From Gavia stellata (Eukaryota; Chordata; Aves; Gaviiformes; Gaviidae): a stretch of 64,000 nt of DNA. The notes under the pieces were generated by a model. That model made no database searches. It was given only the letters and a program-made list of their open reading frames with translations, and was not told the DNA's origin. The stretch covers positions 25,737,943 through 25,801,942 of the forward strand of contig NC_082600.1 in NCBI RefSeq assembly GCF_030936135.1. Reading direction: 5' to 3'. This document shows, piece by piece, positions 25,735-62,500 of this stretch. The translations under genes and the position numbers were made by a program. How positions within the stretch are numbered: position 1 is the first letter of the stretch; every line of letters begins with the position of its first letter.

Positions 25735-28960
<3,226 letters not shown>

Positions 28961-32300: not shown

Positions 32301-35300
32301 GAAATGGCTTTATTTCTGGATAAAATCTGCACCCCTATAGGATTAAAGATTTGGAAACAAAAGCCACATTTCCCTTGTTCTAGTCTTCTCTATGGATGCA
32401 GCAAGGAATGTGTCTGAGTTGAGCTGTGTATGTTTTTTTTTTTTAGATTATTATTTTAAACTATTCTACACTGTACTGATAGTCTGCTCCCTTGCTAATG
32501 AGAATATGCCTCATTTCTGAAAGGAGACATTTGAAGAAATGTACATATTTTCCATTATTGCTGTGTTCTCATGTTTCTGATCCTTTAGACCAAGGCAGTT
32601 GACATTGGTTTTATAGTGCTGTGAGAAGGCTTTGCTCTTCTATTCTTATTGAAGACTAGGTTGCTTCTTGTGGAAGTTTCACATAGTATCTGAGAGTATG
32701 ACAGGGGACACTCTTCTGGCATCCATCTGAGTTCATTTGGGATCATAGTTCTTTCCAGCTATAGACAATACGCAGCATTTTTTTAATATCATTTAGAAGA
32801 AAACCCTCAACAGAGAATGAATGCCGAAGATGTTTTCTTTTTTGCCCATTCTTCTCCTGCTACGTACCTTTCTTTTTGTTCTAACTTGTCCATCTCCTCT
32901 TGTCACAGTGCAGTACTTGGACTTCTTTGCTATTATTGTGCTGTCATTGTATGTCTTACAGCTTGCTTGTCTGTGCAGCATATTTGAATATGGCAGAGGC
33001 ACACCTGGGCGCTCCCTGTATCTCTTGGGATTGCTAATAGGAAAGGCATAATGGGCCACTTAAATAGAGGACACTTTCAGGATGGCTGTCAAAACTGATT
33101 TGAATCCTTTCACTGATCCAGTTGTCCTCTGATGGAATATGCAGATGTCATGTAGTAGCTGGCATAAAAGAAGTTGTGCTTTCTTGAGCAGAAAAGTTGC
33201 TACTGATTTCTGCACTTAGTACAGTGTTGGTGAGCTAGCATGCTGTGGGGCGAGTGCAGTGAATTACTGCTGTCTAAAGGACGGTAAATACGGAGTATCT
33301 TACTGAAGTTGCTCCCTCTGGCTCTCATGGAAGATAGTCACATGGAAATGAGGGCAGGACTGGGGGGCAAAGGGGTCTTTGTGCAGTTGGCAGGTGCTGA
33401 CTACGGAAGTTTGTTCCCTTCAGTCCATTTGAATTCGAGTTCCAGAGCAGAGCGATTCCTCTGCTGGCTGTGCTCTGGGTGCAAGCACTGAATTGTGCTC
33501 TCTTCCTCCAAAAGATTGCAGATTGGCTTGCTGTTGAGTGCGGGTGTGACAGAGGATTCGAAGGAAGAAGCTGGCACTTTGGAGGACCAGAAAGTGGCTG
33601 AACTAGAAGAGAAGCTGCCTGACCAAACCCAGGCCCTCAGAGAGGTAGGTGGGTGTTTCTTATGTCTGAAAGCAAGGACAGAGGTGCAGCAATAGTTCTT
33701 CCACTGTACTCCTGTGCTTATGGCTATGGGACTGAGGCTTTAAGGGTTGCATTAAAACAAAAGTAGTATTAGCATGGATTCAGTTATCTTTTTTCCTGTA
33801 CGTTAGTGGGAGGTAAATGTTACCCGTCTGACTTGCAGAATCCCTCTTGTGTCTTTGGCTAGCTGTCACTTCCTTGCAGTTTTTGGCTCGCTAAGGCTTC
33901 AAGGTTATTCTCAATTTCTGCCTCCTGTCTGGGGCTTCTGGGAGTTCCCTTCTTGCAGATTTATGGAAGAGGGACTGCTGTCTTCTGTTTCTTTTGGTGA
34001 GCAGCCAATTTGTTTGCATTACAGATACAGTTGGGAAAACCTGTGCAAGTGGCACCCAGCTCAGGACCTGTGAGTTTGCATATATGAGGAGAGAGGGCTG
34101 GCCCTAGTGAACCAGATAGACTTTTAACTGGGACACAGCAAATGACAGTGTGATTGTGGCTGTAGTCTAGATGCACACAGAGCTGAAAGGCTCTCCCTAA
34201 AGAGATTGTGTCTTGGGAATTCTTTCCAAGAGTAGTCAGCTAAATCTGTAAGGCTGTTGCTTTTGTTGAGAGGTGACAATTAACTCTGAAGCAGATGCAA
34301 AGATGTGCCTGCGCAGGGACCCTCGGGGAGGCCAAGGGGAGTGTAATTTGTGAGACTAATGCAGCATTTGACTTCAAAGATCATGACTTTGGTGCTGTGG
34401 AGGAAATAATGCAGAGAGGTATCTTGGAGCCAGCCAGTTCTTTTTAACTAACAGAAGCTTCTGCAGGGTCTGATTTGGCTTCAGAAAGATGCCTGAATTA
34501 CTAATGAGTTGTTTTAAATCCAGCAGGGGACTTTCTTACCACGATGGTCTTTGTGACGATGTTTCTTATGTGTTTTGTGCAGGAAGCTGTTGTTCAGATA
34601 ACCAGCTACCATGTACCTCAAGGAGCAGGGGATATAGTCATGATTCAGTCAGATCACACTGGTGCCGTGGATATCCTTTCAGCTGAGCTGGAGACTGCAG
34701 ACCTCCTTGGGGAGCAGAGGAAAGGTGAGTCCTGAAAGGAAAACACTTGTTGGGGCCACTTTTTAAGTGCCTGCCCTGGCTAAAGAAGAGCACAGGCTGT
34801 CCTGGGGACACTGCTAATTCCTGCTGGAAATTTGGGCTCCTGGCTAGCAAGTGGGAAAACTTCATATCCAAGGCTTCTGGGAGCAGGCTCCAGAATGCAA
34901 AAGCCTTATCAGAAATAGCTTCACTGTTTTCAGACAACAGTTTGTCAGTAGTGAAAAGTCAGGTGAGTCCATGATCTTTTCCCTTGTCTCAGCTCAGCCT
35001 CCCCCTCTGGCTCCACCCACCATGTGGACTACTGAGAAGACAAAGGAATTCAAAGCCAAGATGGGAAAGGAGAAGAATGGCCGGATGGTGGTGAAGCGAG
35101 GCGAGGTGGTGACAGTCCGTGTGCCAACCCATCCTGATGGGAAATGCATTTGCTGGGAGTTTGCTACAGATGACTATGACATTGGATTTGGAGTCTATTT
35201 TGACTGGACCACGGTTACTAGTACTGCCATTACTGTTCAGGTCAGCGAATCCAGTGATGAGGAGGATGAAGAGGAGGAGGAGGAAATTGAAGGTTAGTGC

Positions 35301-36514
35301 AGAGCTTATAAGGGTTAATTTGTGGTCCTTCTTGCCTTGCTGCTGAGAGTGTCTGTTAGATGCTGCAATTTCCATCTACTTTGTTTACTCAGCCCACTTG
35401 TTATCTCTGCAGCCTTTTGGGTTCATGGTTAGGCTGTGATGAGAAAGCATTTAGCCCTTCCTGCTTCAGCATATGTCAATGGCTGTCCTTCTCCAAGAGC
35501 GTTCTTAAAATTGAACACATTGAAAAATAAAATCAGAATTTACTTGTTCAACTTCCAGCTGATAAAAAGATTAGGGTCTGAAATTTTAACTTGACTGTTT
35601 TTCTTAGCCTCTCAGACTGAGAAATTTCTGGTGGTGAGTAGGAGCAAAAAGGTTTTGTTTCTGGGTTTTTGTTTGGTTGTTTTTTCCCCCAGTACATCAG
35701 TAGCTCCTGCTGACTGCGTTTGAGAAGACTGCTACCTGTGTCATTGTACTTGTGAAACACACAGAGATGTTGCCTGTTCTGTGGCTTCAGTGTATGTGTG
35801 ACCAGTGTAGCTGGGGGGTTGGTGTCTGAAATTAACTTTACAGGCTCTCCAAAGAGGGGCAGGTTCCTGTATGAGGAATCCTCTTGGAGAAGTGAATTGA
35901 GGACATAAACACAGTGAGGTTATAGCTAAGAGCTTTCCTGCCTTTCTTTGCTTCATGTCTGTATCACAGGACCACTATTGTGTGTATGAAAGCAGTGAGG
36001 CATCTAAAAGGTAAGTCCAGGGAGAGGAGACCAGGCTGGCAGGCAACTGTATACTGTCCCATCAGTATTCCCAAGAGAACTGGTTCTCGGCATGTCCTTT
36101 GTCATTATAAGAAAAGCTGGACTTTCTGGGTATTATTTGCAGGAAGGTCAGAGCAGGCGCTATGGGTAATGCTATCATAGTTAGCCTTCCATATATCTGC
36201 ATGTCTCTGCTGCATTCTGGACTTGTTGATCTTTTTCTGGACTGACTAGTGGCTTAACTGACTGGCCTGCTTACTTGTCTCCTCTCTCCCATTAAGGACT
36301 CACCCCTGTTGGTGACGTGGAAAGGGGCTCCAAAAGCTATCTGCGGAACCGCTACGGAGAGATCATGCCTGTATATCGGAGGAACAGCCATCGGGAGGTG
36401 CAGGCAGGCAGCCACGAGTACCCAGGCGAGGGCATCTACCTGCTGAAATTTGATAACTCGTACTCTCTCCTCCGCAATAAGACTCTGTTCTTTCATGTCT
36501 ATTACACTAGCTGA
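29339..36514 (+). CDS. TMED8: TMED8, GOLD-domain protein, six coding exons, complete
   Basis: TMED8 has a GOLD domain like p24/TMED cargo receptors but no signal peptide or membrane span. Exons: 29339-29429, 30784-30862, 33515-33644, 34583-34724, 34993-35292 and 36297-36514. They sum to 960 nt with consistent phases, giving 319 residues against about 325 in human. The N-terminus ([14 protein letters not shown]...) is low-complexity and diverged. The last two exons hold the GOLD domain from about residue 160: [55 protein letters not shown] and an acidic run ([10 protein letters not shown]). Then come [27 protein letters not shown] and the terminal [12 protein letters not shown], almost as in human. 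Its exact cargo or partner is not established. No lesion is seen. Confidence 0.96.
31086..31260 (-). mobile_element. Degraded CR1 LINE 3' fragment in TMED8 intron 2
   Basis: TCACAGAATCATTCAGCTTG, then GAAGGAACCCTGCAAGG and a TAGTCCA, is the reverse complement of a CR1 3' end. The following sequence drifts quickly from the consensus. It is older than the copy at 15660, and its right end is uncertain. Confidence 0.65.
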
Positions 36515-42470: not shown

Positions 42471-43920
42471 AACTTTGTCTTCTGTTTAAAGCAAGTGAGT
42501 GTCCTGATATGAAAAACTGAACTACAGACTTTTCAACAAAACAAGAATATGATTAAACTTAGTTTTATGAGCAAGAAGAGGCAAATACGCAAAATGTACT
42601 TTGCAGTGTACTGGACATTCTGGTTGTAAATGGGTAGGAAAATGCTCTGTTGTCAGCTGGTGATGATGGTTCCAGCCAGGAATTTTTCTGTCTGTTAAAA
42701 TGACTTGCTGGGACTTTTTTTTTTTTTTTTAATTCTTCAAATTGTCTGCAATGCTTGAGATTATACTGAATGCCTGAAGTATTGGAGAGGAACAGGCAAG
42801 TTGCCAAGCTCGTATCATGGACATGGGTACAGTTTGAATGCTTTACCATCCAGAGCTTCATATCGGTACTTTTCACCTCCATTTGCAGAGATCCCCTATA
42901 GCTAGCTATTATGTTACTTAAGCTTTCAATCTGAAGGATTAAAAACATCTCTTCAGTTACCAGGTACTGATTAAATTATCTAGCGAAAAGTGTTTTGATC
43001 TTCTTAGCTCCTCAACTCCATCAACTTTATCTTACTATGAAGACTAGATTTACATGGCTGTAAGGAAGCACGTACTGGTCAAAATGAGGAACGGTACCTG
43101 CAGCCTGAGCCATCCTTCCTCACTTGTCTCGTTATGAAGTTCAGTAGGACAAGTGCTGCAGAAGTTCAGTTGTCTCTGTTCTAGGCCTGTGTTTCTTTGG
43201 ACCACTTCTTATAAAATAATTGATGGGCAAGAGCAATCATAAAGCAAGTTGATCAAAGGGATAGATGACTGGCCAGTTAAAAATGTTTCATCTTGTTTTA
43301 AGGCCACCAAAGAGAAACAGCGCTGCAGCTATTTGATTACCATGCGCTCAGTATGAATCCTTGTGCTTGGCTCAGGCATATGGCCAAGAGGAAAAGTAAG
43401 CAACTTGGTGGGGATGCAGGGAAGTGATCTGAAATTTCACAACATTAGTTCTTTCCCACCCTTTCTGTAATTTTTGTGGTTGGGCTGCAGAAGAAACGCT
43501 CTGATCACGCACTGCTCAGTGAAGGGCTTGCAGCAGGCTTTGTTGGCCCTGCCTGGGAAGTGACTCTTCCCTGTTTCAGTTGCACACAGAGAATATTGTT
43601 CTTCGGCTGCTGAAGCTCTGTCATTGTTTTTAGTGGTGCTTCATTATCAACAGCAGCTTTGAGCTTAGCAAAGCTATTCATTGTTACACTGGTGGTACTG
43701 GATACACAGTGGAGCCTCTGTAGTAACACACAGATTTAGTTATTGTTTGAGGAGGATCTGCCACTGTTCTGCCTTCTCTGGGCACCGTTCTGCCTTCACA
43801 CCTGCTCCTTTTTATGAGAGCTACAAGAAGCGTGTACAGATACCATAGTTTAGGAATCCGGAAACAAACTGTCCCTCCCCGGAAAGGGATGTGTGGCTTG
43901 GGCTCTAGCAATGAGTGTAA
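42471..43920. other. Intergenic stretch, nothing recognised
   Basis: A run of about 17 T lies at 42715-42731. Beyond this I see no coding block with recognisable homology and no defined repeat before the CpG island upstream of the kelch gene. Confidence 0.55.
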
Positions 43921-43929
43921 CTGGCTATG

Positions 43930-44480
43930 GAGGGGAGGGTGGGCCTGGCTGAGGGCGGGCAGAGCTGCTGGCCCAGCTCTCCCGAGCTCCTCCCTGCCGC
44001 CAGGGCTGCGCCTCAGGCACTGCCGTGAGCGGCGCGCACTGCGGCCTCGGCCGCTCCTAAGGCCGACCGAGGCGGTGCGGCTGGGGCGGGCCCCGCCGGG
44101 TGCCCCCGCAGGAGGCCGGGGCCGCTGGATGGCCGGCGGCCGCCCGCAGCTGCGCCGCGGCGCCTTAATGGCGGCAGCCCGCTGCTCAGGCCCCCGCCCG
44201 CCGCCATGCTGCCCGCCTGCTGCCGGGCGCGGCCGAGGCCGGGGGGCAACGCCGAGGAGGGCGGCCTCGCCTTCTACGTGCTGTGGGCGCTGCGGGAGCC
44301 GCCGCGGCGGCTCGGCAGGTGCGGACCGGCCCTGCCAGGGGCAGCGCGGCAGCGGCTGCCCCGGGGCTTGCGAGGGAGCGGTGGGGCCGGGCCGGCCCCG
44401 TCCCTGTCCAGGGGTGGGCTCCCCCGCGGGCCGGGGCCGACCTGCACGCCTCGCCTCGCCTCGCCTCGCCTGTCTGCAGC
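43930..44480 (+). promoter_or_regulatory. CpG-island promoter of the kelch-repeat gene
   Basis: GC and CpG density rise abruptly from about 43930, peak around the ATG at 44206 (context GCCGCCATGC) and fall after exon 1. No partner gene is divergent from it, unlike the other three islands in the window. The transcription start is inferred to lie within it. Confidence 0.7.
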
Positions 44481-47400
44481 TGCCCCTGGCCGCATGGCTG
44501 CGCTGCCCCAGCTCATGGCTGCGCCGCCGCCCCAGGCTGCCACTTTATTTTCTTCATCGCATTTCTGCGCAGTCTCATCTTTAAATCACACAGACCCTCT
44601 TCTTGTGCCCTCCCCTGGCATAAATGCCTTTTCAAGCCTTTTCATACATTTTCCAGACTTTCCGTTTTACTCCTTGATGATTATCTCTTGTTTTTGTCCA
44701 TCCTCTCGCAGCCAGTCCAGCAAGATGGGTTTCCAGGCTTGGCTGCCTCTGCCGTTGCCGAAGCAGCTGGTGGTGTTTGGGCTGGGAGACTGGAGCTGTT
44801 ACTCTCCGGACACAAGCATCGCAGCAGACGTGCTGGTGTCCCCAGGCGTTGCGCCGCAGCGGGTCGGCACGCTGGAGCCTGCCCGCAGGTCACAGTGGGA
44901 GCTGGCGCTGCCGGGGTGTCAGGAGGGGTGTCCTGGAAAAGCTTTCTGCTCTGTGGTGCTGCCTGGTTCTGCTGGTGTCGTCCCAAAGCTGCTCGGGCCT
45001 GCCAGCCCTCCACCATGGTGTTTCTCTCTAGTGATGCTTTCCGCTTCCTCTTGGCTGCTTTCAGGGCTGGATCTTTTTTGGCTTTGGGGTGTTACCAGCT
45101 AGTGTGGGAGCAGGAATTTTTCACTAGTCAGTGTCACTTGTGGGCTGAAAACCCATGGTCCCCTGTGCAGGTCTCTGGTGTGGGAAGGTGACTGGAGGAC
45201 AGATGTTTTCATGGCCTCATTGAAAGAGATGGACAAAGGCAACTCTGTGAAGCTTGTCCTGACTGTCAATGGACAGGTAAAAGAACCGACATCATCCTCT
45301 CTTCCTGCCCTGGGTCCCAAATATTGTCAGTTCTGAGCTACAGAACTTCCTCTCCCATCCTCTCCTTTTCCTCATCTTTGCTGCTCCAAAGCAGAGCCGC
45401 AAATGCAGATCTGTTAACACACGTCTGTGCTGAGCCTAAACCCTCTGTGATGCTCCAGGCCTATTCCCTAAACACAGCTTTGCCAAAACACCTAGTGTGT
45501 CACCGGAGATGGGCAGCAGAGAACGGTTCACTTCCAGTTCCACTCTCTCCTGGGTCTGTGGTACTTAGACAGTTTATTTACCTTGCGCTGAAGCCCTTGG
45601 ATTTAGCATCTCCCAGTGCCTGGCTTTGCTTTTCTTTGTTTATTCTGTTGGTGCTGGAGATGAAAGCTGGGCTATTCCCTTGCAGAGAATCTGTCCCTTA
45701 CAAGATATCTTTTTGCTCACCCTTTGTGGATGGAGGCCAGCACACTTGGTGTGTCCTTTTATTCTCACTGTCACTGTTTCTGCCACAGTTGCTCCGAGGT
45801 GTCTCCAGCAGTACGCCTGCCCGCCCCTTCCTCGTCCCGCAGACCACCCAGTCACCAGTGCTCCCAGCAGATGATATGCCCCTTGGCCAGGACCTGGAGG
45901 ATCCTACTGTGGTATGTGTATCCTGGAGCCTTCCTCTCGTTATTTCACCCTCTCCTTAGTATCTTCTCCCTCACTAGTAGCTGCTCAGTTGATGTCTAGC
46001 AGAAACATTTGCTGCCGCTCTGTTAGTGGAGACCTGGCTAAGCAAGTTTTGGAACCAAAGATTTAGTTCTGCTAAACAAAGTGATACTCTCCATTGAAAT
46101 GCCTTTGGAAGGGTTGAATTTAACAGCCTTTGGTGGGATGATCGATCAGCCTGGTTACTCCTAGCACAGATGGCCTTTCTCCCTTTCCAGTGCTAGCTGT
46201 GCGTGTCGCAGCCAGCAGCCTGAAAACAGACCTCTGGGCGTATAGCAGCAGGTAGCTGCATTGCTCAGCATATATTTGGTGGCTGATACTGTTAACGTGA
46301 TAGCCCTTAAGACTCAACGGGAAGAAGAGCCTGAAAACAGTCACGACGTGAAACTAATCTCTGGCCCAGTAACAGACAACTCACAGTAGCCTCAGGTCTT
46401 TTTCTTCAGGGCTGATTTGACTGGGACTCTCGTCACAGGTTAAGAGTCAGAGCTCAGAGGTGGCTGCTAGAGCATCCAGGCCTGGGAGGAAGGACGTCCG
46501 CCCACCACTGAGGACTCTGATGGTACCCTGTGCCCTAAAGCCACCATCTGGCAAGGTGGAAGCCACTGAGGCCTGGAGGAAGAGTTCTGTCCAACCCAAG
46601 AAGCCCAGGAAAGTTTTATTTGAACCCACAGCGTCTGAGAGAGATCTCAGTGAAGAAGGTAACTCTGGCAGCTTCCAGGTTTATTTTACAGTTCTTGTCT
46701 GAATAATCTGTCAATGCTGCTGGGCAACAACTTCCCAGTCCATTTTTCTGTATACCTCCAAGGCAAGATAGGCTTGTCTCTCTTGGCTTGCGAAATACCG
46801 AGAATGCTCCTTAGTCCTGGATAAACCGCTTGATGAATTCTTGCCTGTTGGGAAAAGGCCAGAAATAGAAGATGGGATACTCTTAGTGCCAACATTCTGT
46901 ACCATAACATAATAAGCCTATCTCTTCATGTGAGTAAAAGTGCTTTATAAATGAAGGCAAGTATCGTTAGCCTTGTTTTACAAAAGAGTAAATTTGAGGC
47001 ACAAGAAGGTTACCTACTGTAACGTTCTGTAACCTCTCCATTAGTCTGTTTGTTCCCCTACTAACAGCATACCACTTGGTCCATAGAAGACATTGGTTAT
47101 TATTAAAGTATAGAGCATGAAAAGGTCTGTATGTATAATTAGTATAACTGTACTGACTTTTCAGTAGTGAGAAGGTAGCTGCCAAGGGGTTTGGAAACAA
47201 AACCTTTAGCTTCTGGAGTGTGAATTCCAAGTCAGCTCCAGGGTGTGACCAAGTTTGTGTGTAAACGTTTGACAATAGCTCAGTGGTCCCCATGTGGAGT
47301 GACTAGGGACTTGGCTTGCTTCTCACAAAGGCAAATACAGCTCCATCATAAAGTTGCTTCCCCTGTAGGCAGTGTGAGAAAGGGGGAAATGAGCTTCCAC

Positions 47401-50400
47401 CAGAGGGGTAAAATGCGATGGTGACAGCATGATGGCAAAGGAGGTATGCCCTGCTCTTACCTGTCTTCTGCATTTCTTCTGATGAGACTTTCTTCAGGAT
47501 TCTTGGTCTTGCACCTTGTTTGTTGCAGTGAGGTAGCTTTGTGCTGGGGGTTGGAGGAAGGGAGGCCAAAGGGCTCTTAAACCGTGGAGCTGAGCATTTT
47601 CCAGGGTATGTCTGCTGGCTGCTTTCTTTATGGGGCCATTTTTGTGTTTCCTCTGCAGATCTAGCGGTGGAGGAGTTGCAAGGTGAGGATCTGGTTCGTA
47701 GACCCTGGTTTGTCTTTTCAGCCAGTCGGTGATGCCATTCCCTTTAATGTCACAGGCTTCATCCTTTATCTCCCCAGTGATCAAGAATAACAAGTAGGTT
47801 GTGTGTATATGCTGTTCCTCTCCATGCAACTGCACTCAGTATAGGTGCTTCCTGTACTGTCAGTCTCTCCAGTACGATTCTGTAGCCCCTCTGAATCTCA
47901 GGCACACCTCTGGGTGCATAACCCTTTGAGGCAAAGGGTAAGATGTGGAATAGACTTTGATTAAAAAGTACTTTTTAGCTTGCTCAGCCAACCACAGCGG
48001 CCTGGGAGAGGAAAGGAGGAGGAACAGAGCAGCACGAGGAGTATCTCTGAAAGCAGCTCCAGGCTTCTGGTTGCTGTATCTTAGGCACTATTGAGCTGTC
48101 CCTGGGTAGCCCTCCTTCACAAGGAGTAACACAGGGGGATAGCACAATTGGGATATCCCTTCTGGGGGTGGGTAATCAATGGGGGGCATCCAAGCCTGTT
48201 TGAAGTGGCAGCCTGTATGCGTCCTACATCCAGCCAGACTCTTTGCTGGCTCCCTCTGCTAGCGATGTCTCTCCTAGTGCAGCAGTTATTCCCCAAAGCC
48301 AACAGAAAATCTTCCTCAGGGAGCTATGTCTCTTGCCACCCCAGAGGGAAGGCACCTGGGGCCCTTGCCTTCCCATTTCTCCCCTCTGAGCCTTCAGCTG
48401 CCTTGTTCTTCCCAGCAGGGAAGGGAGCTGGGGGTGTCTCATCTGACTCTGCTCACAGGCCTGTGGTCTCCCTTCCCCAGGCACTCCCAGCCCACGGTGG
48501 TGCCATGCCATGTGCCTCGGTGACCTGGGGACAGCTGTTTTGATCGGTGGAGAAGGTGTTGATCAGCAGTCCTGCAAGGATGCACTCTGGAAGCTGGAAA
48601 TTGGTGGGGACTTTAGGGCTATCAAAGGCAATGGGGGCAGTGGGACTTGAGGACAACTCATGCAGATGGGAGGGTGTACTCAAGGGTCTGTGCATAGGGA
48701 GGGGACAGCAAAGGTGTCACATCTCCTAGCACAGTCACCAGGCTGAGCTGACAGTATAGGATGCCATGAGAGGCTGTGGGGTTTATGTGAGAGCCCTCCA
48801 GGAGCTAAGGTATAATAAGTTCTGGAAAGAGTTGGATGAGTTTTAAGGGGTGAAAGCAACAGTGCAGTTTGCAATCTGCGTGTGATGATTGGTGGAGAAG
48901 TGTGAGATACAATTCCAGTGCCTTGCAGCTTTCTGCACCTCACTGATCCTCTCTTCCACCTTACTATTCCCTGCCTTGTTAGTGTTCCCCTTCATTCCTT
49001 ACACAGAAACGTTTCTGTATGAGTCCCCTCTAGCCCTGAATCAAAGGAGAGGAGGAGATGAAGGGAGCAAGGTCTTGAGTAAAGACTTTATTACATATTC
49101 TTTAAATCTGGAGAAATCAAGAGTATCTTTGAACTCCCACACCACCTGCCTGGTGTTGCTCCCACAGACAGTGATTTCTGGCTTCCACTGGGCTTCCAGC
49201 TACAAAACACCAAGCCATTGTGCTTGCATGGTCACACAGCTACCTATGACCCAGACACCAAGCGTATCTACATCTTTGGGGGCATAAGGGAGGACAAAGA
49301 CTGCAGTGGCATCTACATTCTGGACACAGTCACCTGGAAATGGCTCCCCGTGGCTGTAAGTACTGCCGCTCTTCCAAGACAAAAGCACAGGAGGGGTGGC
49401 AGGTCCTGCCTGAATGTGGCAATTGATGTGCCCTTATCCTTACTTCAGTAGTCTTGGCCCACTGTTGCTGCAGGTTGTCTGAGCTGCTTAGTTGGGATTG
49501 AGAGATACAAGAAGGCTATGTTGAAAGGCCACAAGCTTGGCAGAAACCAGGGGCTGTGCCTACAATGAATGAAGCAAGGTGGGGAAAAAATGGTTGCTGC
49601 AGAGTGCTGTGTCTGACCGAGGTCGCGGGTGGGAGGTACTGTACGAGCAGCAGAGGGAAATGGCCTCTCATTTTATATGATGCTTTTGAGAGCTGCACTG
49701 GATGCTGAGGTGAAGAGCTAGTCTTCCCAAATCAGGGACTGCTCTGAGCACAGCAGATCTCTGAGCTCTTTAGTTGCCTGTCATGTCCTTGCAGAGGGCC
49801 CTGTCAGTGAGGGACTATTTGTCTCTTTCCTGGCTAAGTCACAAGATGGCTTTTACAGAATAAGCCTGGATGAGATCTTTCGGTTCTCTGTTGTCTTCTG
49901 AGGAAGCTGGGGTAAGAGGTTGACTTCCCTCTCTTGTCAAAGCATTCTGGTGGTGCAGAGTATGCAAAGGATGTACTATTTGCCTGTGTGACAAAGATCA
50001 GGCTGGGGAGCCAATAAAGTGAAAATTGAGACTTGTTGAACTCACTGCATGATGTGGGCCAGTTTCCTACAGGTCATGCAGCAAACAATGCACTTGTAAC
50101 AAATGTATGTTGAACTTTTTCCAGGCTAAAGGGAGGATGCCAGTGCTCACCTACCACAGTGCAACTATCTACCGCAAGGAGCTCTTTGTTTTTGGAGGCA
50201 CTTTCCCCAAAAAGGCATCACTGGCAGTTGGACCCTGCAGCAATGTGCTCTATGTCTTCAATCCAGAGCATGAAATTTGGTACCAGCCCATCTCAGAAGG
50301 GGAGAAGCCTCTGCCTAGGCTTGGGTGAGAGTGCTCTTATTCCAGCTCTCTAAAATAGAGCAGGAAACCCCTGATCACCTTCCCTCCCACCCCAGTGTAA

Positions 50401-52258
50401 TTTCCTAAATATTAGGTAGTTGTTCTCCACGGTTTGCTCCTTAAGATAGGGCTGTGATTTGAGCAATGTGACTCCCAGTATCTCCTGTCATGAATCCTGA
50501 TGGGATTCTGTCCTTGGGCTGCAGTGGCTGGGGGTAGAGGCAGGTGTAGACTGAAGCTATGGCAGCCCAATACTAGAAGCCAAGGCTGAAACATCAGTTT
50601 GGGGAACTTGCTGAAGATGCTTTGTTCGCTTGCTTCTTCTCTGCCCAGGCATTCAGCTACTCTACTGAAGAACAAGCTGCTGATTTTTGGGGGTCGGGGA
50701 ACTTCTCTTTACCTCAGTGACATGCACATCCTGGATCTGGGTAAGAAAGGCTGTGCTAGATGGCTGCCTGGAAGGTCTGTTCTAAGGCAGGGACTGGGGA
50801 GTGAGGCATGCTCGATGGGAAGGTAGCATTAACATTATAAAAACTCCTGACTAGGCATTGGAGATGGAAAACTATGGGGTAAAAAAACCCTTTCTGGGGT
50901 AAGAGGGGAGGGAATAGGGAAAAACAAGACTGCTTTTTTGGAAGAACCTGGGTAATAGCGAGGCAGGTTGCTGATGCGGCAGACTATGGAAGTTTTTGTC
51001 TAGTTACGAGGCTGAGCTTTTTGGACATTTCACCTGCTTTTCCCCTGGCTGTCAGGTTTCATGGAGTACACACCTGTCCCCCTCCTCGCAGGACAGCCTT
51101 CCGCACGTTGGTAAGATCCTATTGCAGACCAAGGAGCTATCTTCTTCCTCTGTCCTTTCTCTCTGAAGCCAGGTTTAAACAGTGCTTGTAATCAGTCCCA
51201 GTTGCGTATTTCTGTCCCAGTAGTCAAAATATAGTGGACAGCCCCTCTGCTGTGGGACCAGAAATTCCTGTGCTGTCCTAGTTGGTGCCTGTAGGGCGCA
51301 GGGGGTACAGACCCCTTAGTCTCCCTGGAAATCTGCCTTTCAGGCTAGGGGAGGTTTTCTGCTGTGTGCGAGTGAACTGTATTGCCTGCTGTTTGGTCTC
51401 CACAGTACTTGGAGTACAACAAACACACAGAGAGGAAGAAACTCTTGTACCAGGACTCTGCTGTTCCTGAAGAGACACTGTTGCCCACTAGAACAATGAC
51501 CTAAATCAGACCAAAGCCCAGCTAGCCTGCTATCTCACTCCATAGAGCAAAACACAGGAGTTTTGATAGCTCTTTCTGGGATAATGAGGTGTTTTTCAGG
51601 CCTGATTATGGTCTGACCTGCAGAGGCAAACAAACAGCTCTTTCAGGGTTATTCAGCAAGTCAGGGCAGAAGAGAAGTTAACTTCCATTCTGCAGCTTAA
51701 GGCCCCAGCCTCCTGCTGCAGTCTGCCCACCCCTGCCCATTGCTGACTGAGGCAACCCCAGCAGGTTTTGCTGTTGTCACCTTTCAGCTTTGCTTTGGTT
51801 GCAGTTTTCATGCAGCTCTGGCTGTGTCAGACCAGAAGGTTCTGATCAGTGGAGGCTGCAATGCCAAGGGAGCCCTGCAGGATGCCTTTGTCTTCCACCT
51901 AGGTGAGTGATTCTCTCTTCCTGTTTCCATAGCTGAAGGTGACTATGGGGCTGCAGTGGTGTTTCTGAACACCTAGTCTGGTCCATTTGTTTCATCACAC
52001 TAGGAATGGGCTTGTCAGTATTAATAGCCCCTTTCTACTCCAGATACTCTTTCATGGAGCACAGTGATCCACCATGACCTCTGCTCTCTGCCCCGAGCTG
52101 GCCACACATTGCTTGACCTGACTCCTTCCCACCTGATGGATGTGGACAAGGAGAACAAAGAGGAGCATAACCTGCACACGGTGTTGGTCTTTGGGGGCTC
52201 CAACTGTGCTGGGACCTTTTACAACAGCACAGTCAAGATCCAGCTGGACCTAGGGTAA
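44206..52258 (+). CDS. Unnamed six-kelch-repeat protein, 13 exons, looks intact
   Basis: Not recognised by name. Exons: 44206-44318, 44712-44888, 45171-45276, 45789-45911, 46439-46658, 47659-47682, 48481-48603, 49168-49355, 50125-50324, 50649-50740, 51056-51110, 51805-51902 and 52044-52258. All phases chain without a stop, giving about 577 residues. The N-terminal half has LVVFGLGDWS and WEGDWRTDVFMASLKEMDKG, a Pro/Ser-rich linker and a basic PKKPRK at about 226-231, possibly a nuclear signal. From about 255 a kelch propeller follows. Its double glycines lie at about 277 (VLIGG), 333 (IYIFGG), 382 (LFVFGG), 439 (LLIFGG), 490 (VLISGG) and 557 (VLVFGG), with spacing near 50-65 residues: six blades. 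The start was chosen by Kozak context and because only this frame joins exon 2. The ATG at 44168 is out of phase. The end may differ, since a splice from 52254 to 52602 would give a 600-residue form. Kelch propellers usually bind proteins; no function is claimed. Confidence 0.82.
44448..44471. repeat. GCCTC pentanucleotide repeat
   Basis: Nearly five tandem copies of GCCTC lie in intron 1 of the kelch gene, inside its CpG island. It is a simple repeat. Confidence 0.85.
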
Positions 52259-52327: not shown

Positions 52328-52333
52328 AATAAA
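52328..52333 (+). terminator. Poly(A) signal of the kelch gene
   Basis: A canonical AATAAA lies 70 bases after the stop codon read straight through exon 13. I find no other plus-strand AATAAA until about 57137, inside GSTZ1. This is the main reason for preferring the stop at 52256-52258. Confidence 0.55.
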
Positions 52334-53594: not shown

Positions 53595-56500
53595 TCAAGC
53601 TTGCAGCTCTGCAGGAGTATCTGGCTGCCGGGATGGGTGGCTTACTTTGAATGCCTCTAACTCTAGGAGAGCTTTGTTTATTCTGGTTATTGTGGGATAT
53701 GGACCCATGTCCACTTTGAATCTACAAAAGGAAAAGAATTTGTGAGGTACTATGAGTCAGACAGGCAGTGCAGCAGTGAGCAGAAGGGCAGAACAGTGTG
53801 CTGTACCTGCCCAGTATGAGAGAATTTCACAGGCTGTGGTACATTTGCATTAAGAGAAAAGGTTCATCCTTGTAGGTTTAAAAACAAATACTACAGGAAA
53901 GGTTAGTTAGTTCTTCCATCTTCACTGGGCTTTTGCATAGTGTGCAGCACAGGGTAAGAAGGCACTATGCTTTTCATGGGAATCATGCAGCCACTACTTG
54001 CATAGATTTAAGGCTTTCAACAAATACAGTCAAATTAATTTTTTCCCCCCTGTGTGCAGTGTAAATATAGGGCAAACAGGGAGAGAGGATGTGGAGTGCA
54101 GGCAACCTTAGCTTTTCTAAGGACGTCAATCAGGTTTCCTCCAGGGGCCTCTGAGAACAGAGCACAGCTCCTTATTTCCAAGAGCTTCCAAAAGAGACAG
54201 TATTTGTGGCATAGGAAAATTCATGCAGAGAAGAATCCATAACTGGATAGGGCAGGCAGGAGGGATGCTTCCCTAACAGGCACAAGGAGTAGCAGAAGGT
54301 AAGCTCTGACAGCCCAGCACAAGGAGTAGGTGCCCTTGAAGAGCGCCTCAAGCTTAGCCTTAATTACCTTTCAGCATTGGAAACTTGAGGCACCAAGCAC
54401 AGATCAGCCATGGAAACCTGCAAATGTAGCAGAGAAAAGGGGTCAGAGTAACTCAGAGCCTGTCCCATCATGCTTCACTGTGGTAGCAGGCTTTGAGAGC
54501 AGGATAGAAATTACTTTATTAGCCAGTACAGAGGAGTTGTCACAACAATCTCATTCTTTAATCCAGCATTAATAATACAAGAATTGTACAAGGAAAGGAA
54601 CTTCATAGCAGTCACTACTAGAAGAAGCCATCAGCCTTCAGGGAGCTTCATATTTACTGGCTGATCATGATGACCTCAAGGACACAGTGCTTCTATGGCA
54701 CTGCCTCTGAGCAAAAAAGTCTGCTGGCAAGCTGCAGAGGGAGGCGATGGAGGGAGGGGGGAGTTTGCATTGGCTGGGAAAAGGTGAGTAAATTTTGCTT
54801 GTTTGCATTGCAGGAGTATCGAGCGGCTCCTGCCAATGTCAAGACCTGATATGCGATAGGGTCTTTGCGCATAGGCTCAGGGACTCACAATCTGAAAAGA
54901 AGACTCAAGGACAATACAGCTAGCTGCCTATCTGCACAGAGACCACTGCCCCCACCCCACTCCCCAGGTCACAAAGCCCTGGGTGCCTTTTAGAGCACAC
55001 ATTATTCTCCAGCATAAGATCTCATAACTAGCCTTTTCCTACTATTGGCTCCAGTTCCATAAAGCTCCTACTAGACAATCCTCTGCATCACAGGATATTG
55101 CAGGAGCCTTCCTTTTTTCTCAGGCTTTTATAGGAAAGATCCAATTGCCTGCCAAACAGGACTACTATGTGGAAGAGGCCTGAGTGGCCTCTAGCTTGGT
55201 AAGGGTCAGAACAGCTTATATGTGAGCTATCTGGAATCTGTCCATGTTAAAGTTGAACAAACAGAGCAGAAAAATACAATCCAACTTGGTTAAAGGTCCC
55301 ACAGAGCAGAGCTAAGAACTGAACCTGTGTTTCTTGAGTCAAGCTTTGCCCCTATGACAGGACACTTTGAACTCCAAATCTCTTAAAGATGAAATATGTA
55401 TAATCTGTTTCCACATCCTCTAGGAGCAGACAGATCCTAGATAGAGCTGCAGAATCTAGCCATCATCAGGTTATAGGCAGGGACAAGTAAACAGCTCCGT
55501 AACTATTTGCAAGTCAATAATGGCCTAAAAGGATCCATAGAGCTGTTTTTCTTATGGTGAAGGCACCGCATGTAACTCCAGGCACAGGATGGGGTTGTGC
55601 TGTGTCTCCACAACTAATTTCCTTTCCTGTTTTATAGAATATACTGAGGTTTTCAGTTCTCCAATCGTACACAACACTCTAGATAGATACTTACTTCATC
55701 CCCCACACAGTAGCGCCCGGAAGTGTGCTGCAGAATCTGCTCCAGTGCTGTCAAGAGAGGTGGTACACTGGAGTGAGGCATTGGAAACTAATTCTAAAGG
55801 GACACCAAAGACCTTTTAGACTGGGAATTATGAGCAAGGGCATTTTGACCCTGAGATGAATGTGACAAAGGGGCAATTTGGGACAGAACCTAGAAGGAAC
55901 AGAAATCTTACAACAGCATAGTTATGGGAGTCTTTAGGGTCCTTCAGCTTTTTGGGACCCAGGGTGATTTCAGTTGCTTCAGGCAATGCAGCTGAAATAC
56001 TAAGAAGATGCTGTAGAGATGTGTGAGTGGGGATGGGGAAAATGCAAAGGTTCAGTCAGTTTGCATCTGTCCAGAAGTGAAGATGGGCCTGCCATTCCAG
56101 CACATCCGGGAGGGGTTTTGAGGAAACAAAAGGCACCCTGTTTCTCCCAGGGAGGTAAAGAAATACTCTGCTACTTGCTAGATTCTGTGGGAGTTTGCCA
56201 TTACATATCTTTTGTCTGATTACAAAAACATAAATATAGATTGATAGAACTTTAAAGCAAAAGGCACTAGTTTGGGAGCAGCTGGGTGGAAAGGAGAAGT
56301 GCTGTCAGCCTTCATACTTCAGGGTGAGTCAACTGTTGCAGTGTACAGGATGGCCCCAGGCTTCCCCTCTTCCATGCACAGCAGTGGAAGTGCCCTGTAG
56401 ACAGCATCTTTCCTCCAAGACCCTGGAGAGCTACCGGTCCTGGACAAGGGACTCTGGGCAGGAAGAGCACTGTCTCTGCCAGCAGGGCAGGACCCCAGCA

Positions 56501-59500
56501 CACCAGCCTAGGGAGATCTGCTGTTCTGCTTGAAGAGGAAATTAGGACCCCAGCAGTGCAGTGTTTTGAAGGATCAGTATAAGTGCTGATCATTTTGAAT
56601 GTGGGACGCACCTTGGAAGCCAGACGCAATGCAGTTCTGAGCCCATTCTGTTTTTTTCTCCCCCATTTTTTTTAGGATGCTCAGGTTCTGTGGAGGCAAG
56701 CAATCTCCAGGTTAGATTGATCGCTGCTGGCTGGATCTTGCCCACTGATTCATCCAGTGGAGGAGGGGGGAGATGAGGAGTTGCCAAGCCTGAACCCCCA
56801 GCCTGAGTTCAGCCTGCTGGGTCAGCCCTGACCTCAACCTCATTGAATCATGTACCCTGCTGTATCTCTCTCTTGGGACTGTCCTTCTGTAACAGCTGCC
56901 AGGGTATCCCTTTGCCTCTGCCCTTTGGGTTGCTCAATTGTCTTCTTCCTAAGATGTCCTAGACCCAGCAGTGAAACTATATGGATTCAGCCATTTCTGG
57001 AAAGAACCCTGGGGTGCTATAGGATTTTCTGTGTAGGAAATACTGTATTGTTGCCATTGGCAGATCAGGCAGAGGCTAAGCAGAATTTTCATCTGCTAAT
57101 ACACAGTCTTAAGGTCTGCCACTCTATTGGCTGGCAATAAAGAGACTGAGCTTTTCAGAGATACAGACTCCTGGAAACCCATCCTGGTTTTCTCATTTGC
57201 ATGAATATGACAAGGCAATACCTGGAGAGGCTGAATGCCGGAGACAATGTGATCGGCAATCATTCTGACTTTGGCTCTCTTCTTCGGATCTTGGGGCAGG
57301 AGCCTGGGGTTAGGACGGGTGTCTTCTAGGTAATGAATTATAGCTAGCTGTAATGAACAAAGAGATAAGGAGAGGTTATTGGAGACCCAAGGAAAAGTTC
57401 ACATCCTGAACACCTGGGAAAGGAGAGCTGATCCAAGAGAATACAACAGCTTTTGAATGAAGTTTGTTACCAATGCAAGCAACAGAATATCCCCTTTGAT
57501 GTCTGCTTGGGACCTTGTTGTCATTTAGCCCAGCTTTAATTTCAGGCAAACCCTGGCACGGCCATCTAAGTCAGACTACAAAGTGCTCAGTGAAAGGTGG
57601 AGTTACGAACCGAAGCTAAATTGAGCTTAAATCCTTGACAGCAGTTTCCCAGCAGAGGCTATGTGCTATTTCTACCCCCAAGTGGGATTGTTTATCACAA
57701 ATGCCATCTCTTTTCCAATGCACAGATGAGAGCTCCGGGGGAAGAGATGGGGTAAAGCCATTCCCTCCAGACTGGCAGCAGGCTGGAGTGAATGGTTAAC
57801 AGGGATGTGGCTGGTAACTCACTGACTGAGAAAGGGTGATGCCATCAATTTTCAAGACTGGGACTTGCTGCATTGGATTCACTGCCTTGAATTCAGCAGA
57901 AAACTGTGGAAACAAACTTGAGATTACTCTACGGCAACAAGAAATTCTTCTTCCTCATTTTCTTCCCCTAGAACCCAGTTACCAAATTATTTTATTTTTT
58001 TTACCTAGCTTTTCCCTCTTCCTCAGTACTAATATTTGCAGTAAGTTATGCTGTACTATTAGCCTACAGCAAGCTGTCACTGGGGCTCAGGGGTCACTGC
58101 ATCCAGGGCCAGACTGCCTTCCCTTTTGATAAACCGTCTATACAAAGCCCAGGATGGGTGGTACTGCAGCAGTGTCACTATTGCTGTTCTAGTTCTCCAA
58201 CTCCATCTTAGCCCATACTGGCACATCAAGCTGGTGGTACTAGGGTGGCACTACTAGGTGCACAACTCCACGCTATGGCCCCCCAAATAAGTTCTCAGTG
58301 AAGATCTCTTCTGGCAACCCACCCCTTCCTTTGGCAGGCCCTTTGCAGCCCCTTGCTGTATCGTTTAGCATCTTTTGGACGCATGCCCCCTGCCACACAC
58401 ACTCTTTCTGGTGCTAAGTGAATGAGGTCGAGTCTGTGTTTAAATTGCAGAGCAACTTCTCTGAAGTCTGTGCACCAAATATGTTCAGTTATGCTAAGCA
58501 GGAGCAAAAGATCTTCAGCCTCATGAAATTCAGTCACAGATGTTTAAGAGATGAAAAAACCTTTAGTCTCCTGTAGTCATCTTCTCCCTCTCTCTTGCAT
58601 GCCAGGGAATACTGGCTGAACGCAACTATTAATTACAGAGAAGCAGTGAGGTATTCAGTGACTTTGCCTTTGAACTTTCTAGTGCTAATCCCAATTCTCC
58701 TAATGATCCCCAAGTTCAGTACCCCTGGAGAGAGCAATGGTAGCTGTATCTTACCTGCTGCCCCCCATCCTTCAGGAGGTTCACTGGCACCAGGTCATAG
58801 GAAATCCCTTTCAGAGCCAGTGCTAGGGAAAGCAGAGTGTACAGCTTCAGACAGGCACACTGAGACCAGTTTAATTGGTAATGGGCTCAGGGAAGTGTTA
58901 CCATCTCCATTTGAGAGAAGAATGGCTTTAAAACCAAAAAAGACCCTATCCCTCAAGAAAGGTTGCCTGAGTCCACCAAGAAAATATAGTGCTCTGGCAA
59001 ATGAAGGACTAAAGCACTAAAGATCAGTCCTGGCAAAAACACTGCATTTTTCAAAGTAAGTTTTGCCACTCTTTGCAGCACAGCCCCTCCTGATTTGGCT
59101 TATAGAGGGCAGGAGGCCCTGTGCTTACCTGTAAAACCTTGCTTAAGACTGACTCAGTACAAGTAGGGACCATTCCCAGCCCTGCTTAGCTCTCAAGACC
59201 TGGGCAGACCAGAGTCTGAGGCAGTATCCGTGTAAAAACAGAGTGTAGGGCCTCTCTAGATAATGTGGAAGAAACAGCCATCTGTATCGTGTTAGCTTTA
59301 CAAAAGGAGTAATTCCCTCTAACTAGCTGCAGGCTGAGCAAAGCCCTCCTGTTTGTTCCTCTCCCTTCCCCCTGCCCCAGGTAAGCTGTGGTAGTCCCTT
59401 CCCTCCCACTGGGGAAACACCTCACTGTCCCAAGTTCATGTTTGCTGATCTCTCTCTTAATAAGTGACTGATTAATCAGGTTAGTGAAGGGAAGGATACT

Positions 59501-62500
59501 GCAATAACACCAAGACAATAAAAAAGAGATAATACTGGATCTTACCGATTCTCACTCTCCAAGAGCAGGAACTTCGGAAATAGCTATAAAGTATCGGCTG
59601 AGAAAAGAAAGAGAGATAAAGTGGTTATATGGTGGGAACACCAGAGTATTGTAAGGAGAACAATGCATGAAGAGAATGCATTTCAGAAACTGTAAGACAG
59701 GGAAGAGCAACATTTGAGGGCAAGAGGGCTCCTTTCTGAAAGTGACTTCCTGTTTTGGGCGTACAAGGTAGTATCACTGTCTTTCATGCTGGCCCTCTGA
59801 ATATTTAGCTGCACCTGATGTTTCCAGCAATGCAAAAGTGACCCTAAAATTATCCCCTACAAAGCTTCCGTCTTTGTCCCTATCAGATATTGCTAACTTC
59901 TATCCCATCTTAGATTTTTGAAACAAATTCCTCACTGACTGTGCCAAGCACCTGCAATGGGTATTTGCATGGCATGAAATAGCTTTTCCAGTCACACAGG
60001 GCAGGGCCAGGCCTCTTTCCAAACAAGCAGAGCTTCTGCTGTTTGAGATGAAGGCCAAGAGGTAAGACAATTCATCTCTACCCGAACTCTAGCACGGAGG
60101 CAGCTTTCCTGGATGCTTCCACCCTGTCCAAGCTCTCACCTTTTCAGATGCCATCATCAGTGTGTGCAATCTACTCCAAGAGATTAAAACAACCGCTTCG
60201 CTTTCCCTTTTGACTCAGCTGGGATGGGGGAAGGCTTCTCTCCTAAAGCCAGTGAGAAAAGGACTATGCCCCCAGGTCTGTGCCCAGGAAACAGAAAACA
60301 GCCAGTCAGATCCAATCCTGAGTGACTGCAGTCAGCTGCATCTGTATACCCGTGTGTTGCGCTGCAGCCCCAGCCCTGATATCAGAGCCATTAACCAGCT
60401 TTGAGGTTGGAAGCACGTTTAGGAACCATCCTTATTTCCCTGGCTTTTTGTCCAGAAGCAAATAAGATATCTAGAGAGCCTGTCAGGCTCTCAGCACTTG
60501 CAAATGCAGGAATATAGCCCTGGGGAACAAAACAAGGAAACCGAAGCCACATGCAGAATTTGTTTCACTAAGGAACAACTGCCAGCTCCCTGAACAGGGG
60601 CTGCCTTTGTGGGGAGGTCCCTTAGGGTCTTCCTGTAGCCCTACTCCCATCAGTACTAGCCAGTGCAGAGGGTTTTCTACATTGTAGGCCTGGGAGAGGC
60701 TGCTACTCTGCTCCTGGGCCAACTTTGTGCAAAATATGAAGCTTGCTTTTTTGTGTTAGGGTCTTTTCTTTCCACACAGGAAACTGGTACTCATGCATGT
60801 CTCTAAATAAACCCATAATCATGCCTATTCTTCCTTCCATAGATCCCATGGCACGCCAGGGATCAGTCTGTGTCTCTGCCCTCCCAAAATGCAGAGAAAT
60901 TATATCAGAGACTGACAGCAAGGCAGAAAAAGGCAGGGATTTGCTCACTGACACGCGATCTGTCAACAGAAAACCAGAGAGACACCGAGGATGTCTGTGC
61001 TCCAGTCCTCTTTGTAAGCTTGATGCTTCTCTTGCAGTTTAGATTGGTTCAAATAACTTTAAATGAGGTATGCATTTGATTAAATTACTCTAGTCAAATG
61101 TTTACTGGAAAAATAGTTTGTAAGTAAGGAGGGAAGTGATGGTAGTATTGGCAACCCTTGTGGACAAAGTATTTACTGATTTTCTTAAATTCTCTGCTTC
61201 TGGAATCAGGGCATCAGAAATCTCAGCTATGCTTTTTTTCAAATGTCTAGCCTGCTGGGTTGCAGGGAAAGAAGCAGTAACCATGACTTCAAAAGGGAAA
61301 TATACAGCATTCATGCCATACTATTTTTAGTTGTTTTTCCTGGGGACCTTGCTGATGATTTTTTGGCTCGGAAATTCATGTCCTTCACCACATCTGTTTT
61401 GGACTCTGGCTCTCAGCTGGCAGAGACATTTCTCCTGATCCTCTCTACAGTTCTTTGTTGTTTTTGCAGCCTGTGCTATGATTTGTAATAAATTGTGCTA
61501 AGCTAATTGCTTTGCTCTATAATTTCAAGGACCCAGGGGATGTCACCAAAAAGAACACGGAAAACAACCCGTCCCTCAGCTGGGAACTGTGTCTCCAGAG
61601 TCTGGGGCTTGGAGCGATCTCTTAAGTTCACGCTATTTTGCTCCCAGCGGCACAGCAGATCACAGGCAAAACAATCAGCTAAGTAAAGACTAGAGACAGC
61701 AGAAGTGGTTTGTCCTCAGTGGATGGGTCCCAGAGTGACATTACATCTAGTCTTCCTTGGAGGAAGAGCTGAGCATGGGCCAGGGAAGTAGTGGGGAAGA
61801 ACTGTCTCCATTTACAACCCTGTGGGGTACAAGCGCTACAAGCTGCAGGTTAGACCGGTTGGAGCTGGGAAGATAGCAGGAGGACAACATTTGCTTGATG
61901 TCTACTGAGATTTCTGGTTTAGTTCTGTTTTCATTTCCAGCATCAGTGGTGCAGTGAGGGAAGTTTGGGCTTAAATCCCCATCCAAAATAAAAATCTGGG
62001 AAATGCATTTCACTGTTTAGGAAGATGGAAGAGACACCCCAAACTTTGTGTGTTGAGCTCTCAGGTTTCCAAGCCTTTCCGCTTCAGTATGGTCTCCTCT
62101 GGATACCACCTCTTTCCAGGCTATATTCGGGATGCACTTGGAAAGGCAAAGTCTTTCACCCATTTCTTGAGACCCATCACTTCAAGCAGCCTGCCCACAG
62201 GGACTGACGCAGGGCAGTCACCCAAGTGGGACAGGAGAGAGAAAGCTGCTCCTTGGAGGCTTGCATAGGGGAAACCTCGGTGTCTGAAAGGCACTGCTTA
62301 TATTCTGCTGGGTTAAAACGTAAAGGTATAAGCAGAAGGAACAGGTTTGCTCCTAAACTCTCAGGATCTCTGCAGCAGGCATTGGTGTTAACAGCTCACA
62401 TGGATAAGCTATTTTAAGTAAACATCACCACTGCTTTGTAAAGCATTAGTTTTATTTGCACGGGGACAAATTGCTTGCTTGCCACTGAGACAGAGACACG

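What the first reader, a model, noticed from the sequence alone, without database searches (positions are those of the whole stretch)
44206..52258. Intact six-kelch gene between TMED8 and GSTZ1 that I cannot name
Thirteen exons chain in phase with no lesion. Six kelch double-glycine motifs are seen at regular spacing, along with an N-terminal half unlike any kelch family I can recall. The gene has its own CpG island and poly(A) signal. Human has TMED8 directly beside GSTZ1 (from memory), so this gene may have been lost or moved in the mammalian lineage, or gained in sauropsids.
Basis: partly seen in the sequence, partly recalled or inferred. Interest (0 to 1): 0.78.

Follow-up and report, generated by a model that had tools for sequence, protein, structure and literature searches.

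The report
Unnamed bird kelch gene beside GSTZ1
A bird chromosome carries an intact gene for a kelch-propeller protein in a block of neighbours where a published list of human genes shows no kelch gene, so it may be an old vertebrate gene that the human lineage lost.

Summary
Thirteen GT-AG exons at 44206-52258 (+) join in phase into 577 aa with six kelch GG motifs, a CpG island and an AATAAA. Pfam gives a kelch propeller at 177.5 bits; residues 1-254 match no Pfam family and no PDB chain at E<0.1. An exon-by-exon search of its own 1.32-Gb genome found one copy. RABEPK, the best-scoring vertebrate single-propeller kelch protein I scored, has its own locus. AHSA1, VIPAS39 (recalled), TMED8 and GSTZ1 flank the gene; a published list of human protein-coding genes for that block holds these four and no kelch gene (PMC11061283). 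With no close paralogue, an old gene absent from the human block fits better than a recent sauropsid gain; loss across mammals was not testable. Fish KRCP, called 'teleost-specific' and expressed in neural stem cell niches (PMC4326923), is a candidate orthologue; no fish sequence was available. My mechanism, a nuclear kelch adaptor, rests on motifs only. Weak points: exons 1-6 lack homology support, intron 1 and the 24-nt exon 6 do not disturb the frame, and there is no RNA evidence.

The parts
43800..44800 (+). CpG island over promoter and exon 1 (approximate bounds)
   Evidence: GC 0.58-0.82, CpG o/e 0.53-0.88 in 400-base windows starting 43801-44601; two CCGGAA sites at 43858 and 43879, no TATA, E2F, CHR or CCAAT match in 43700-44330
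44206..44318 (+). exon 1, start ATG, aa 1-38
   Evidence: first ATG of the open frame, GCCGCC before ATG; no homology support
44712..44888 (+). exon 2
   Evidence: GT-AG, in phase; intron 1 is itself open in frame
45171..45276 (+). exon 3
   Evidence: GT-AG, in phase
45789..45911 (+). exon 4 (start of disorder-prone linker)
   Evidence: GT-AG, in phase; TOP-IDP rise from about aa 136
46439..46658 (+). exon 5, basic linker
   Evidence: GT-AG, in phase
46595..46621 (+). PKKPRKVLF (aa 226-234): NLS-like basic run and loose RVxF-type PP1 docking motif
   Evidence: pattern match only; the strict RVxF pattern is not met
46499..46519 (+). RPPLRTL (aa 194-200), D-box-like
   Evidence: pattern match only
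47659..47682 (+). exon 6, 24-nt microexon, phase-neutral
   Evidence: GT-AG; inclusion not required by the frame
48481..48603 (+). exon 7, kelch blade 1
49168..49355 (+). exon 8, kelch blade 2
50125..50324 (+). exon 9, kelch blade 3
50649..50740 (+). exon 10, kelch blade 4
51056..51110 (+). exon 11, between the GG motifs of blades 4 and 5
51805..51902 (+). exon 12, kelch blade 5
52044..52258 (+). exon 13, kelch blade 6, acidic loop and stop
52148..52156 (+). KEN triplet (aa 542-544) in the blade 6 loop
   Evidence: pattern match only
52328..52333 (+). AATAAA poly(A) signal
35091..36511 (+). TMED8 GOLD-domain exons (upstream neighbour; 5' exons not mapped)
   Evidence: GOLD_2 PF13897: two genome matches in the window, 239.5 bits when joined; frames
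53595..59624 (-). span of the open frames that hold GSTZ1 exons (downstream neighbour, tail to tail; exon bounds not set)
   Evidence: frames; TIGR01262 maiA, 216.5 bits over its cut-off

Best explanation
It is a working protein-coding gene for a six-bladed kelch beta-propeller protein of its own family. Shown: an in-phase exon chain, a kelch propeller at the C terminus, no Pfam domain in the first 254 residues, no other copy found in the genome, and a place inside a gene block whose published human gene list has no kelch gene. Inferred: it is an old vertebrate gene that has gone from the human block rather than a new sauropsid gene. It probably acts as a nuclear adaptor. The N-terminal part (about aa 20-135) would be a small folded module, the linker (about 136-250) would carry a nuclear import run (PKKPRKV) and dock a partner, and the propeller would hold a client protein on its face, as other kelch propellers do. 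It is probably not a KLHDC2-type C-degron receptor of a cullin-2 ligase: the protein ends at blade 6, with no BC-box after it. If fish KRCP is its orthologue, the setting is dividing progenitor cells.
For: In-phase exons and promoter/poly(A) context; frame control; PF24681 at 177.5 bits and no Pfam family in aa 1-254; no PDB relative of aa 1-254 at E<0.1; 11 of 12 genome matches lie on its own exons and the 12th is a BTB-BACK-kelch frame (named by eye) at E 9e-5; RABEPK at a separate locus, 27.5% identical over 320 aligned positions; human list without a kelch gene (PMC11061283); no BC-box pattern and a basic run at 226-232; KLHDC2 pocket positions only partly kept (FGGR arginine kept as R441, but Y446, C474 and F475 at the places I recall as R241, S269 and W270).
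Against: No transcript or protein evidence. All functional motifs are short patterns that occur by chance; the strict RVxF pattern failed, and no E2F, CHR or CCAAT site was found in 43700-44330, which does not support cell-cycle control. Exons 1-6 have no homology support. Absence from mammals other than human was not tested. Orthology to KRCP rests on a shared domain name only.
Confidence: 0.5

Rival explanations
1. It is a known mammalian kelch gene that sits elsewhere in mammals (moved, not lost).
For: Kelch proteins are many, and I scored only RABEPK, KLHDC3 and those with solved structures.
Against: The vertebrate proteins scored are far away (bird RABEPK 27.5% identity; LZTR1, KLHDC2, KLHDC3, KLHDC10 and FBXO42 at 57-72 bits with the full 577 aa), while bird and human RABEPK (human recalled) are 57% identical. 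The N-terminal half matches nothing in Pfam.
Confidence: 0.15
2. It arose in sauropsids by duplication of another kelch gene, RABEPK the likeliest parent.
For: RABEPK is the best-scoring vertebrate single-propeller protein tried (bird 84.6, human 88.1 bits). Three of RABEPK's six introns fall at the same aligned place and phase, and both genes have a long loop before the last GG.
Against: Only 27.5% identity to the bird's own RABEPK. The matching phase-1 introns after strand d also occur in KLHDC3 and HCFC2, so they are not special to RABEPK. A multi-propeller dynein heavy chain scores slightly higher overall (89.9 bits).
Confidence: 0.12
3. It works like KLHDC2/3/10: a substrate receptor of a cullin-2 ubiquitin ligase.
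For: The Pfam family name includes KLHDC2; aa 400-529 align with KLHDC2 over 130 aa.
Against: The protein stops after blade 6 and no BC-box pattern is found. Of the four pocket positions I recall, one is kept.
Confidence: 0.12
4. The N-terminal half is mis-built: the real protein starts near exon 7 or uses other 5' exons.
For: No homology for aa 1-254. Intron 1 is open in frame, and exon 6 is phase-neutral.
Against: CpG island with a well-placed ATG at exon 1; GT-AG sites throughout; codon-position GC of 0.646/0.512/0.693 in the N-terminal half against GC 0.485 in introns 2-12.
Confidence: 0.15

Closest known systems
RABEPK (Rab9 effector p40)
   Same: Six-kelch propeller, colinear over blades 2-6, long loop before the last GG
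   Different: RABEPK is 372-374 aa with no N-terminal half; separate locus C24:12744076-12746544 in the same genome; 27.5% identity
KLHDC2 / KLHDC3 / KLHDC10
   Same: Kelch propeller; KLHDC3 shares phase-1 introns after strand d
   Different: These carry a cullin-binding box after the propeller (recalled); here the protein ends at blade 6 and no BC-box pattern was found
Fish KRCP (kelch repeat containing protein)
   Same: A kelch-repeat protein called teleost-specific by its authors (PMC4326923, passages)
   Different: Sequence and chromosome place not available here; orthology untested
LZTR1
   Same: Kelch repeats, 72.0 bits
   Different: LZTR1 also has BTB/BACK domains (recalled); no match to these families was listed here

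Membership tests
Kelch-repeat superfamily (Pfam PF24681 and kelch clan) | Matches the kelch propeller model above the curated cut-off | tested here: met
   177.5 bits against 50
Kelch-repeat superfamily (Pfam PF24681 and kelch clan) | Several kelch repeats with GG doublets | tested here: met
   Six GG at aa 277, 333, 382, 439, 490, 557
RABEPK | One-to-one orthologue of RABEPK | tested here: not met
   The bird's RABEPK is a different locus, 57% identical to human RABEPK (human sequence recalled); the window gene is 27.5% identical to it
RABEPK | About 370 aa, all propeller | tested here: not met
   577 aa with a 254-aa N-terminal half
KLHDC2-type cullin-2 receptor | BC-box after the propeller | tested here: not met
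   Ends at blade 6; no BC-box pattern in 577 aa
KLHDC2-type cullin-2 receptor | C-degron pocket residues (R236, R241, S269, W270 as recalled) | tested here: not met
   Only the FGGR arginine is kept
KLHL (BTB-BACK-kelch) | BTB and BACK domains before the kelch repeats | tested here: not met
   No Pfam match in aa 1-254 at E<=1
KRCP (fish) | Sequence orthology | not testable with these tools
   No fish proteome or genome in the collections; no letters in the paper passages read
KRCP (fish) | Place between TMED8 and GSTZ1 | not testable with these tools
   A paper search for two or more of krcp, gstz1, tmed8, pomt2 and vipas39 gave 20 papers, 0 of 20 holding krcp

The most novel reading that the evidence does not exclude
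An ancient vertebrate nuclear kelch gene, still present in birds and, as KRCP, in fish, has been lost from mammals. It serves dividing progenitor cells, so the 'teleost-specific' label for KRCP is wrong and mammals lack a regulator that regenerating vertebrates keep.
Probability: 0.3. Interest if true: 0.65.

Novelty: new member of a known kind. Interest (0 to 1): 0.42.

Why it matters
A clean gene difference inside an otherwise conserved block makes gene loss in the human lineage easy to date and test. If it is KRCP, a gene reported in neural stem cell niches of fish could be studied in birds and its loss in mammals linked to phenotype. Otherwise it is one more unnamed kelch adaptor, probably already present as an automatic gene model in bird annotations (not checked).

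Tried and rejected
RABEPK as the identity: rejected, because the bird's RABEPK has its own locus. Shared intron positions as proof of RABEPK kinship: rejected, because KLHDC3 and HCFC2 show the same phase-1 site.

Relatives outside vertebrates, searched with the propeller half: genome contigs (14 pattern matches, 0 of 14 a relative by tblastn) and viral contigs (2 pattern matches, 0 of 2). NCBIfam gave only weak sub-cut-off matches for the whole protein.

Print searches for the gene or its loss (10 searches, listings only unless said): TMED8+kelch (2 papers, by title unrelated to the locus, not opened); GSTZ1+POMT2+neuroglobin+synteny (1 paper, PMC3087553, one passage read: GSTZ1 and POMT2 are also near each other in amphioxus, no kelch gene mentioned); krcp with kelch (53 papers, 20 listed), zebrafish (103, 25 listed), chicken (63, 20 listed) and mcm5 (1) (among the rows listed only PMC4326923 was clearly about the gene; the others I did not open); at least two of 'kelch repeat-containing protein', zebrafish, neurogenesis, 'lost in mammals' (12,785 papers, 15 listed, none with the first term); RABEPK duplication in vertebrates (0); two or more of krcp/gstz1/tmed8/pomt2/vipas39 (20 papers); two or more of kelch and four phrases for loss in mammals (28 papers, 20 listed). 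Passages of PMC10416458 describe a method that lists genes absent in mammals; its main text holds 0 mentions of kelch, GSTZ1, TMED8 or KRCP, and its supplements could not be read. Passages of PMC4734686 and PMC12840616 name Tmed8 and Gstz1 but say nothing of what lies between them.

Cell-cycle promoter motifs: none of those tried was found. The VIPAS39 pieces matched no fitting Pfam family, so that name rests on recall.
Full report
What is there. The first script mis-set exon 9; one search corrects it. The six GG doublets are 49-67 residues apart. A CpG island covers the start and AATAAA follows the stop by 70 bases. Pfam scores the kelch propeller at 177.5 bits against a cut-off of 50, and lists nothing in residues 1-254 even at E 1. 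Random pieces of the same lengths and phases from 36.6-61 kb would all be open with a chance of about 10^-9.9; the sampled stretch still contained the gene's exons, and the figure ignores the freedom of choosing splice sites. For the kelch half chance is out of the question. For exons 1-6 the case is weaker: there is no homology, intron 1 is 393 nt and open in frame, and exon 6 (24 nt) can be skipped without a frame change.

Surroundings. On the same window AHSA1 lies on the - strand (Aha1_N, 107 bits) and VIPAS39 on the + strand (recognised by eye from recalled human sequence in the frames; its pieces matched no fitting Pfam family). Next come TMED8 on the + strand (GOLD_2), then the kelch gene, then GSTZ1 on the - strand, tail to tail with it (TIGR01262 over its cut-off). 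A paper on Papua New Guinean genomes prints the human protein-coding genes of chr14:77312867-77558267 as POMT2, GSTZ1, SAMD15, NOXRED1, VIPAS39, ISM2, SPTLC2, TMED8 and AHSA1 (PMC11061283, table row and column heading seen as passages). The list is not in map order; that the human order is the same is recalled, and I did not identify NOXRED1 or SAMD15 in the window. Four of the nine listed genes were recognised in the window, and no kelch gene is in the list. The genome is most likely a bird's: its nuclear copy of mitochondrial cytochrome b matches the 1bcc chain at 455.6 bits, 70 bits above the next distinct sequence (that 1bcc is chicken is recalled).

Is it a known gene under another address? 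A search of the whole genome with the protein, exon by exon, gave 12 matches. Eleven lie on its own exons, and the twelfth (C3, E 9e-5) is a BTB-BACK-kelch frame by eye. RABEPK, the six-kelch Rab9 effector, sits at C24:12744076-12746544 with seven exons and 57% identity to human RABEPK as I recall that protein. The window gene is 27.5% identical to the bird's RABEPK (88 of 320 aligned positions). On one scale (phmmer, full 577 aa) the scores are: human RABEPK 88.1, bird RABEPK 84.6, LZTR1 72.0, KLHDC3 70.1, FBXO42 69.2, KLHDC2 about 58 and KLHDC10 57.2 bits. One protein, a multi-propeller dynein heavy chain, scores 89.9 in total, but its best single stretch is weaker (48.2 against 70.7). KLHDC1, 4, 8, 9, HCFC and others were not scored, so 'no mammalian orthologue' is not proven.

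Intron positions. Three of the six RABEPK introns fall at the same aligned place and phase (1) as introns of the window gene; the other three RABEPK introns and three of the window gene's six propeller introns are private. As a control I read seven strand-d ends in four other kelch loci of this genome (gene names by eye): 3 of 7 have a phase-1 donor right there (KLHDC3 two, HCFC2 one) and 4 of 7 do not (KLHDC10 three, an ATRN-like locus one). So the site is found in other kelch genes and is no proof of RABEPK kinship. The low identity to everything else scored speaks for an old split and against a recent sauropsid duplication.

A lead in print. Baumgart and colleagues (authors recalled; [quoted passage not shown] KRCP is expressed much like PCNA in zebrafish embryos, is found in neural stem cell niches in young killifish and falls with age; they call it a putative transcription factor. 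The window gene could be its orthologue, which would make the label 'teleost-specific' wrong. I could not test this: no fish sequence is in the collections, and a paper search for two or more of krcp and the neighbours' names gave 20 papers, none holding krcp. The window gene's promoter stretch shows no E2F, CHR or CCAAT match, which does not favour cell-cycle control.

How it may work. From sequence alone: an ordered-looking N-terminal stretch (about 20-135), a disorder-prone basic linker (about 136-250), then the propeller to the very end (one disorder scale). The linker holds PKKPRKVLF, which reads as a nuclear import run and a loose PP1 docking motif (the strict pattern is not met), and a D-box-like RPPLRTL; a KEN lies in the blade 6 loop. 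All are patterns without test. There is no BC-box pattern and no tail after blade 6, so a KLHDC2-like ligase receptor is unlikely. Against KLHDC2 the FGGR arginine is kept (R441), but the other three pocket positions that I recall are Y446, C474 and F475. My best guess is a nuclear adaptor that holds a client on its propeller; I put the nuclear-adaptor step at about one in three, and the identity as a real single-copy gene at about nine in ten.

Verdict. It is a new or at least unnamed member of a known kind. The single most telling result would be a search of fish, frog and mammal proteomes with the N-terminal half.

Noticed in passing
G000:C44:60660367-60660909 (L051): A stretch of a large contig with cytochrome b and an ND5-like frame (by eye) that stay open over long runs under the vertebrate mitochondrial code: a nuclear mitochondrial insert, or a mitochondrial piece built into a chromosome.
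   Followed up: partly
window 25819-26166, - strand: An open frame with exon-like protein sequence ([16 protein letters not shown]...) between VIPAS39 and TMED8, where human has NOXRED1 and SAMD15 (recalled); no Pfam match, not named.
   Followed up: partly
window 44319-44711: Intron 1 of the kelch gene is 393 nt, a multiple of three, and has no in-frame stop, so retention would lengthen the protein by 131 residues.
   Followed up: no
window 36512-44205: A 7.7-kb gap between the TMED8 stop and the kelch gene in which I recognised no further gene by eye among the open frames of 70 aa or more listed.
   Followed up: no
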